Positions 49,916 to 59,513 of a stretch of 64,000 nt of DNA are shown here, piece by piece (the first letter of the stretch is position 1; the number at the start of each line of letters is the position of its first letter). The notes under the pieces were generated by a model. It was not told where the DNA came from and ran no database searches. It saw only the letters and a list, made by a program, of their open reading frames with translations. Source of the stretch: Candidatus Gastranaerophilales bacterium (GTDB taxonomy: Bacteria; Cyanobacteriota; Vampirovibrionia; Gastranaerophilales; Gastranaerophilaceae); the NCBI GenBank assembly GCA_944323695.1, contig CALUTI010000003.1, positions 124,001 to 188,000 of the forward strand. The letters are read 5' to 3'. Made by a program: the position numbers and the translations under genes.

Positions 49916-49944
49916 TTGACAACAAAACCTTGATAATCTATAAT
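49916..49944 (+). promoter_or_regulatory. perfect consensus sigma70 promoter of a peptide gene
   Basis: TTGACA (49916-49921), 17-bp spacer, TATAAT (49939-49944): a match at all 12 hexamer positions with ideal spacing. Confidence 0.85.
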
Positions 49945-50024
49945 TTACCTACAGGGTAGTACCCGTCACAACCCGACCCACACACGTATTTAACTAAGCA
50001 ATCAGTGGAAAGGGGGTGAGAAGA

Positions 50025-50099
50025 TTGAAAAAAGAACACATAAAAAATGCCATCAAGGCAATGATAGCATTTTTACAGTTAATTTATTTCATTCTTTAG
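50025..50099 (+). CDS. small hydrophobic peptide (24 aa), candidate type I toxin
   Basis: TTG 50025 lies 6 nt after AAAGGGGGTGA, nearly full complementarity to the 16S anti-SD; an in-frame GTG (50016) is an alternative. The peptide has a basic amphipathic start (KKEHIKNAIKAM) and a hydrophobic end (IAFLQLIYFIL), like membrane-active toxins. It follows a perfect promoter with a ~75-nt leader, and a perfect convergent promoter lies just downstream. This is the arrangement of type I toxin-antitoxin loci such as TxpA/RatA. The peptide itself matches no family I recognise. Confidence 0.5.
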   Translation: MKKEHIKNAIKAMIAFLQLIYFIL

Positions 50100-50137
50100 G
50101 GTACTAAGTGCAGTCACCAATGGGGACTGCCACCCTA
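50099..50137. terminator. hairpin region shared by two convergent transcripts
   Basis: The imperfect stem GGGT...GCAGTC-ACCAATGG-GGACTGC...ACCC spans the 3' end of the peptide gene. It lacks an immediate T run, so termination is not certain; it may instead be the pairing region between sense and antisense RNAs. Confidence 0.4.
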
Positions 50138-50144
50138 TATATTC

Positions 50145-50172
50145 ATTATAACTCCTTTTTTCACTTTGTCAA
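50145..50172 (-). promoter_or_regulatory. perfect consensus promoter antisense to the peptide gene
   Basis: On the minus strand TTGACA (50167-50172), 16-bp spacer, TATAAT (50145-50150). Transcription would start near 50138 and run antisense across the 3' end of the peptide mRNA. Confidence 0.75.
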
Positions 50173-58805: not shown

Positions 58806-59513
58806 TTATTGGAAAGCCTCTTTATGCATTTGTTCAAATCGCCTGCCGCCTTCTTCAATAGGTTGACAACCTGTATCACTAAATCTAAAATTATTGCCAT
58901 CAGAGCGTAATGTTAATGCATACAAATCATGTCCCCACTTATTTGGTCCTTTCATGCCGTTTATGTCTATCACAGTTATTACACATCCTTGCGTCGAGTT
59001 AAAGAAAAATAATATTGTACCGTCAGCAAGATTATATACTGTTTTATTATTCAATATTGTATTTGTATTAAAACCGCCGCAATTTCTTGTAGCATAATCC
59101 TGCCAGTAATCTTCATCATAATCTTCGTCATCTTTATGCTATTCTTTTATAATATCATCTGCACCTCTATATTCAGGTATACAGCCATTTTTAAAGGCAT
59201 GATCTTTACAAGTTTTTGTTATCTTTAATGACGATAAAAAATATTCGGTTAGTTGTTTACAATCAGAAATCTCTGTAATATTACCTGAATCATTTTTATA
59301 ATAGCATCTGGGCAGATAACCAAATTGACTTTGAGCACTTAATAACGCCTGGCTTAACATTGCATAACTTCTTTTAAATTGATTTTTAAGTACATTATCT
59401 TTGTAGTTACTTATTAATGTAGGTATTGTCATTGCCGCAACAACACCAATAATTCCAAGCGTTATTAAGACTTCCGCTAAAGTAAACCCTTTTCTTGATT
59501 TATAATTCTTCAT
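58806..59513 (-). pseudogene. type IV pilin-like protein, locus 5 (interrupted by in-frame TAG; leader out of frame, 9 G)
   Basis: From ATG 59513 the frame gives MKNYKSRKG then FTLAEVLITLGIIGVV, a normal short prepilin, but stops at TAG (59139-59141) after DDIIKE. The same frame continues without further breaks (HKDDEDYDEDYWQDYATR...) to 58806, so a single nonsense codon splits a ~236-residue gene. TATAAT ends 6 nt before ATG 59513, so this copy may have its own leaderless promoter. The shared G-tract leader (ATG 59644) is also present and is out of frame at 9 G; 10 G would join it to MKNYKSRKG. Confidence 0.75.

What the first reader, a model, noticed from the sequence alone, without database searches (positions are those of the whole stretch)
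49916..50172. Candidate type I toxin-antitoxin locus: tiny hydrophobic peptide between two perfect convergent promoters
A full-consensus promoter (17-bp spacer) drives a ~75-nt leader, a near-perfect SD (AAAGGGGGTGA), and a 24-residue peptide with a basic start and hydrophobic end. A second full-consensus promoter (16-bp spacer) faces it from 50172, so an antisense RNA would cover the toxin 3' end and its hairpin. This matches the layout of TxpA/RatA-type loci, but I do not recognise the peptide family.
Basis: partly seen in the sequence, partly recalled or inferred. Interest (0 to 1): 0.8.

Follow-up and report, generated by a model that had tools for sequence, protein, structure and literature searches.

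The report
New gut-bacterial RNA-controlled toxin family
Between two ordinary genes of an uncultured gut bacterium (Gastranaerophilales, non-photosynthetic relatives of Cyanobacteria) sits a 257-base module that very probably makes a 24-residue membrane peptide kept silent by an RNA read from the opposite strand, and it belongs to a previously unannotated family found one to ten times in about half of the genomes of that bacterial family and once in a phage.

Summary
Both promoters are perfect (12/12); only three such sites exist in the 64-kb window. The 24-codon TTG-start peptide gene is one of five copies in its own genome and of a family in 203 of 383 Gastranaerophilaceae genomes (30 of 41 genera), with insertion-site polymorphism (occupied, empty, decayed sites) and one phage copy. 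More than 100 relatives keep the same RNA chassis. (1) The toxin-RNA 5' end pairs with the sequence right after the stop codon, with strong covariation. (2) A 6-9-nt leader box near the ribosome site is repeated in the 3' UTR, so the antisense RNA can pair at both places; this also covaries. (3) The antisense RNA's terminator hairpin is written into the toxin codons. Some relatives carry an unrelated hydrophobic peptide in the same chassis. No Pfam, NCBIfam, PHROG or Rfam family matches. Best reading: a new family of type I toxin-antitoxin modules, working most like par/Fst of pAD1 with an added hok/AapA-like end-to-end clamp, but not a member of the TxpA, Fst or AapA families. Toxicity and transcription are inferred, not shown. 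The clamp does not measurably change predicted ribosome-site access, so its role is open.

The parts
49916..49944 (+). toxin promoter, TTGACA-17-TATAAT
   Evidence: 12/12 consensus; -35 lies about 97-109 nt before the start codon in the genus copies
49951..50024 (+). toxin mRNA leader (predicted start about 49951)
   Evidence: position relative to -10; conserved AGGGT(A) at the RNA 5' end
49957..49964 (+). 5' clamp arm UAGUACCC
   Evidence: perfect 8-bp complement of 50099-50106; covaries across units
49966..49981 (+). anti-Shine-Dalgarno segment (UCAC, CCC, CCAC)
   Evidence: pairs with the SD region in the MFE fold; leader:SD duplex mean -14.2 versus -10.2 kcal/mol with shuffled leaders
49993..49998 (+). 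leader box ACTAAG, direct repeat of 50103-50108, in the loop of the SD hairpin
   Evidence: leader/3'UTR repeat covaries across units; loop position
50009..50019 (+). Shine-Dalgarno AAAGGGGGTGA
   Evidence: sequence; conserved in units
50025..50099 (+). peptide CDS, TTG start, 24 aa: MKKEHIKNAIKAMIAFLQLIYFIL
   Evidence: family alignment; codon-position constraint
50043..50074 (-). intrinsic terminator of the antisense RNA, embedded in the toxin codons
   Evidence: exceeds synonymous-codon controls in most units; G-U strand asymmetry 68:22
50099..50106 (+). 3' clamp arm GGGUACUA, from the last base of the stop codon
50103..50108 (+). 3' copy of the box ACTAAG
50097..50137 (+). 3' hairpin UAGGGU...ACCCUA with inner GCAGUC/GACUGC stem
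   Evidence: consensus stem with compensatory changes
50036..50138 (-). predicted antisense (antitoxin) RNA, about 100 nt
   Evidence: promoter plus terminator, fold z -4.7; conserved in the family
50145..50172 (-). antisense promoter, TTGACA-16-TATAAT
   Evidence: 12/12; 12/12 in most genus copies

Best explanation
A type I toxin-antitoxin module of a new family. The rightward promoter makes a toxin mRNA whose SD is held in a hairpin with the leader (predicted) and whose 5' end is clamped to the sequence after the stop codon (supported by covariation). The leftward promoter makes a ~100-nt antisense RNA that starts next to the 3' hairpin and ends at a terminator written into the toxin codons (promoter and terminator conserved; transcription inferred). 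It pairs fully with the 3' half of the mRNA and, through the repeated box, also with the leader loop beside the SD, blocking translation and/or triggering RNase III cleavage (inferred). When antisense synthesis stops or the mRNA is processed, the 24-residue amphipathic peptide with a basic N-terminus and hydrophobic end is made and acts on the inner membrane (inferred). Copies come and go at chromosomal sites, and one is carried by a phage.
For: Promoters. Family and copy number. Peptide frame conserved: in 81 distinct 24-codon CDSs, codon position 2 of codons 18-24 has entropy 0.73 versus 1.48 and 1.52 at positions 1 and 3. Peptides: mean GRAVY 1.43, net charge +2.2, hydrophobic moment 0.34 versus 0.19 shuffled. 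Clamp covariation: discovery set -9.5 versus -6.4 kcal/mol permuted, 0/2000; new units, 43 sequence types, -8.9 versus -6.5 sd 0.28, 0/3000. Direct repeat: 6.8 versus 4.7 nt, 0/3000; new units 7.0 versus 4.8 sd 0.16, 0/3000. Leader x antisense duplex -10.9 versus -7.2 sd 0.30, 0/3000 over 52 types. Antisense terminator inside the CDS: score 27.2 versus 14.3 in synonymous shuffles, 87% of 82 new units at p<=0.05. Strand asymmetry of G-U pairs points to the antisense strand as the one under selection. Gain and loss: occupied, empty and decayed sites beside the same gene. Phage copy in Dulem virus 31.
Against: No expression or toxicity data. No canonical terminator was found for the toxin mRNA: the T-run at 50155-50160 is not directly behind a stem. 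Removing the 3' UTR does not change the predicted energy to open the SD (6.2 versus 6.0 kcal/mol, p=0.2), so the clamp cannot simply be called the translation switch. Cognate specificity among paralogues in one genome is partial. Outside the genus the forward promoter is weaker by the sigma-70 consensus. The permutation controls do not fully remove relatedness between sequence types.
Confidence: 0.88

Rival explanations
1. The leftward promoter and structured RNA are a promoter or attenuator leader for the downstream gene (here NUDIX), and the peptide ORF is incidental.
For: In the window the antisense RNA reads towards the NUDIX gene, which is on the same strand; a terminator inside the module could look like an attenuator.
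Against: The NUDIX/HEAT junction exists without the module in relatives with gaps of 23-43 bp. At other copies in the same genome the antisense RNA points into a convergent gene. A phage carries it among tail and lysis genes. Codon position 2 is constrained.
Confidence: 0.03
2. A small hydrophobic peptide under antisense control with a non-toxic job, such as a membrane-stress regulator, a phage superinfection or lysis regulator, a secreted signal or an antimicrobial peptide.
For: No toxicity data; amphipathic cationic helix; the phage copy lies a few genes upstream of a peptidoglycan-recognition gene.
Against: Multi-layer silencing, many copies per genome, gain, loss and decay at the same site, and exchange of the peptide on one RNA chassis fit toxin-antitoxin modules better.
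Confidence: 0.08
3. A non-coding mobile RNA repeat whose ORF is a by-product of a palindromic terminator.
For: The middle codons are palindromic, which limits the peptide sequence.
Against: Strong SD, length peak at 24 aa, three-base indels, codon-position-2 constraint outside the stem.
Confidence: 0.01

Closest known systems
par/Fst (RNA I/RNA II) of plasmid pAD1
   Same: Convergent promoters; toxin RNA with SD hairpin and protected 5' end; direct repeats that let the antisense RNA pair near the toxin start (PMC7472228)
   Different: No shared bidirectional terminator: the antisense terminator is inside the toxin codons. The peptide lacks the Fst signature (Trp then charged C-terminal tail). 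The 5' end is paired to the 3' UTR.
txpA/RatA and bsrG/SR4 of Bacillus subtilis
   Same: Small hydrophobic peptide; antisense RNA overlapping the 3' part of the toxin mRNA (PMC4147584)
   Different: RatA has no complementarity to the initiation region; here a leader box is complementary. The peptide has 24 aa and no Pfam match.
aapA/IsoA of Helicobacter and hok/Sok
   Same: 5'-3' long-distance interaction in the toxin mRNA; many chromosomal copies; short peptide (PMC6733600)
   Different: Here the SD is held by a leader helix, and the clamp did not alter predicted SD access; the convergent antisense RNA starts beyond the stop; peptide unrelated by family search.
msoT1/msoA1 of Microcystis aeruginosa
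   Same: Candidate type I system in the Cyanobacteria phylum (PMC12390103)
   Different: A photosynthetic species; sequences were not compared here. Model R1 found no match outside Gastranaerophilaceae in the phylum sample.

Membership tests
type I toxin-antitoxin (general) | small hydrophobic peptide under its own promoter and SD | tested here: met
type I toxin-antitoxin (general) | antisense RNA gene overlapping the toxin gene (promoter and terminator) | tested here: met
   conserved promoter and terminator; transcription itself not tested
type I toxin-antitoxin (general) | peptide toxic when expressed, antisense RNA neutralises it | not testable with these tools
   needs expression experiments
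TxpA/RatA | toxin homologous to TxpA / holin-like toxin | tested here: not met
   no Pfam, NCBIfam or PHROG match at or near a cut-off; weak power for 24 aa
TxpA/RatA | antisense RNA overlaps only the 3' part, without complementarity to the initiation region | tested here: not met
   leader box complementary to the antisense RNA
par/Fst | convergent promoters | tested here: met
par/Fst | direct repeats giving antisense-leader complementarity | tested here: met
par/Fst | shared bidirectional terminator | tested here: not met
   antisense terminator is inside the CDS
par/Fst | Fst/Ldr peptide signature (Trp plus charged C-terminal tail) | tested here: not met
   peptides end hydrophobic; no Pfam match
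hok or AapA type | 5'-3' long-distance interaction in the toxin mRNA | tested here: met
hok or AapA type | the interaction masks the SD until 3' processing | tested here: inconclusive
   predicted SD opening energy unchanged on 3' UTR removal
hok or AapA type | homologous toxin | tested here: not met
   weak power for 24 aa

The most novel reading that the evidence does not exclude
One RNA control chassis (clamp, leader/3' box, convergent antisense promoter) has spread through a whole bacterial family and its phages while the toxin codons were repeatedly exchanged for unrelated hydrophobic peptides, most of which again encode the antitoxin's terminator on the opposite strand: a toxin-exchangeable type I system combining par-like and hok/AapA-like control.
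Probability: 0.5. Interest if true: 0.78.

Novelty: new variant of a known kind. Interest (0 to 1): 0.63.

Why it matters
According to PMC12390103, type I systems had been found only in Proteobacteria, Firmicutes and Tenericutes before that 2025 report of a candidate in Microcystis. This would be a large, multi-copy family in uncultured gut relatives of Cyanobacteria, with more than 100 natural variants. The variants make RNA pairing rules (clamp, box, terminator-in-codons) directly testable by swapping arms between natural alleles, and give a natural experiment on how unrelated peptides come under one antisense control.

Tried and rejected
Rfam: no RNA family at the locus. RNAalifold on the sense strand found only the 3' hairpin, because the CDS hairpin sits in two registers in two subfamilies; it was tested unit by unit instead. 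IMG/VR pattern scans: none, or five chance hits in unrelated sequence that the RNA model rejected. The search for related loci with the peptide or its alignment is not possible (too short or too diverse). Plasmids: no match. The idea that the clamp itself hides the SD was tested and not supported. The idea that the leader box serves mainly to pair with the mRNA's own 5' end is only weakly supported (-7.0 versus -6.4, 4/3000) against strong support for pairing with the antisense RNA. The NUDIX-promoter reading was rejected on context.

Full report
Observation. Full-consensus sigma-70 sites are rare here: three in 64 kb, two of them these, and none in eight Markov shuffles. The start codon is TTG (50025). 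A terminator-like hairpin on the minus strand (50074-50043) lies within the codons, so the antisense RNA would run from about 50138 to about 50040.

Host and distribution. Relatives of the neighbouring NUDIX gene at 83-94% identity are mostly in records titled Candidatus Gastranaerophilales. The window's genome holds five copies. A 151-position sequence model built from 31 units finds the family in 203 of 383 genomes of the bacterial family, 30 of 41 genera, with up to 10 copies in one genome. Outside that family there are four genomes in the order sample (one of them, G075, is an incomplete genome with the match on a short contig) and none in the phylum sample.

Units. The 37 first units keep the order promoter, leader, SD, short ORF (mostly 23-27 codons), 3' hairpin, facing promoter. 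The two invariant residues in the main peptide alignment are the start Met and one Lys (K7); the C-terminal third is hydrophobic. Codon position 2 is by far the most constrained in codons 18-24, which a non-coding repeat would not show.

RNA chassis. Three couplings were measured, first on the discovery units and then on 82 units whose coding sequence was not in the first set. (a) Clamp: the RNA 5' end (AGGGUAGUACCC in the window) pairs with the bases after the stop (GGGUACUA). Subfamilies change both arms together, for example AGACC/GGUCU, AACUCC/GGAGUU, GCAGUCC/GGACUGC, UAGCCCUC/GGGGGCUA; mean duplex energy beats all permutations in both sets. (b) Box: in most units 5-10 nt of the leader, in the window in the loop of the predicted SD hairpin, are repeated in the 3' UTR at or just after the clamp arm (ACTAAG, CTGTAAA, GTTATGA, GTGAAGAAA, CGTGATAA and others); the repeat follows the subfamily, not a fixed sequence, and beats all permutations. 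Because the antisense RNA is the complement of the 3' copy, it is also complementary to the leader copy. This resembles the arrangement of DRa/DRb in par of pAD1 (PMC7472228). (c) Terminator: a hairpin, mostly of 12-16 bp, with a U-tract for the antisense RNA lies in the codons in 34 of 37 first units and, in 87% of the 82 new units, scores better than synonymous-codon randomisations at p<=0.05. G-U pairs occur on the antisense strand about three times as often as on the sense strand (68:22), so the antisense RNA is probably the strand under selection.

What the clamp does is not settled. In a crude calculation over 106 units the SD is already closed by the leader, and removing the 3' UTR does not open it (6.2 versus 6.0 kcal/mol, p=0.2); removing both ends lowers the cost to 4.4. 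The clamp may protect the RNA ends, or order folding, rather than mask the SD directly.

Mobility. Between the HEAT-repeat and NUDIX genes the site is empty in L058, L059 and L061 (23-43 bp), and holds one copy in L056 and in the window and two tandem copies in L064; beside the NUDIX gene of L060 there is a decayed copy. One of the tandem copies (L064, the same contig as L006) has a one-base deletion that turns the short ORF into a 44-codon one. Other copies in this genome lie between ordinary chromosomal genes such as ferritin, a histidine kinase and a CxxCxxCC protein. Dulem virus 31, a tailed phage from lemur faeces, carries a complete unit between tail and lysis genes; relatives of its baseplate gene occur in 10 of 146 genomes of the bacterial family, best in one genus, so it probably infects this family.

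Exchanged peptides. Some units have leaders and 3' UTRs clearly similar to those of main-class units (for example 0.95 and 0.89 in L108; 0.89 and 0.96 in L123; 0.91 and 0.92 in L015), while their CDS identity (0.68-0.71) does not exceed that against shuffled CDS (0.73; the measure is gap-inflated). Several of these different ORFs again carry an antisense terminator. One subfamily (MDKFNISLLL...) does not, by this test, and its antisense end is unknown.

Known families. No Pfam or PHROG profile matches the peptides tested, and NCBIfam gives only two insignificant hits for one of them; no Rfam family matches the locus. Profile searches have weak power at 24 residues. In the open-access library no paper joins type I systems with Gastranaerophilales; a looser search listed no paper containing Melainabacteria. 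The nearest taxonomic precedent is msoT1/msoA1 of Microcystis, 2025 (PMC12390103).

Verdict. A new family of type I toxin-antitoxin modules: the architecture is shown by comparison, while transcription, toxicity and neutralisation are inferred.

Noticed in passing
window 59548-59520 (minus) and 58806-59513 (minus): The only other 12/12 promoter of the window lies upstream of a pseudopilin-like gene that appears split into two ORFs (59139-59513 and 58806-59054), while a similar gene is intact at L198:4547-5179; possibly a broken paralogue.
   Followed up: partly
L137:5962-6236 (PP511318.1): Dulem virus 31 is filed under Microviridae (Microvirus) but is a 35.8-kb record with tail, baseplate and lysis genes, so its taxonomy looks wrong.
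   Followed up: no
L108, L116, L195: Units of the same chassis encode 32-34-residue peptides with an N-terminal hydrophobic stretch and a charged tail (..LELLELF.KS), a different toxin class.
   Followed up: partly
L056 and L064, next to the module: A fragment resembling the C-terminal end of an HTH (Xre-like) regulator lies beside the inserted module; two HTH genes also lie near the copy in L200.
   Followed up: no
window 50155-50160: A conserved T-run lies 15-20 bases after the 3' hairpin, inside the spacer of the antisense promoter; whether it terminates the toxin mRNA is unclear.
   Followed up: partly
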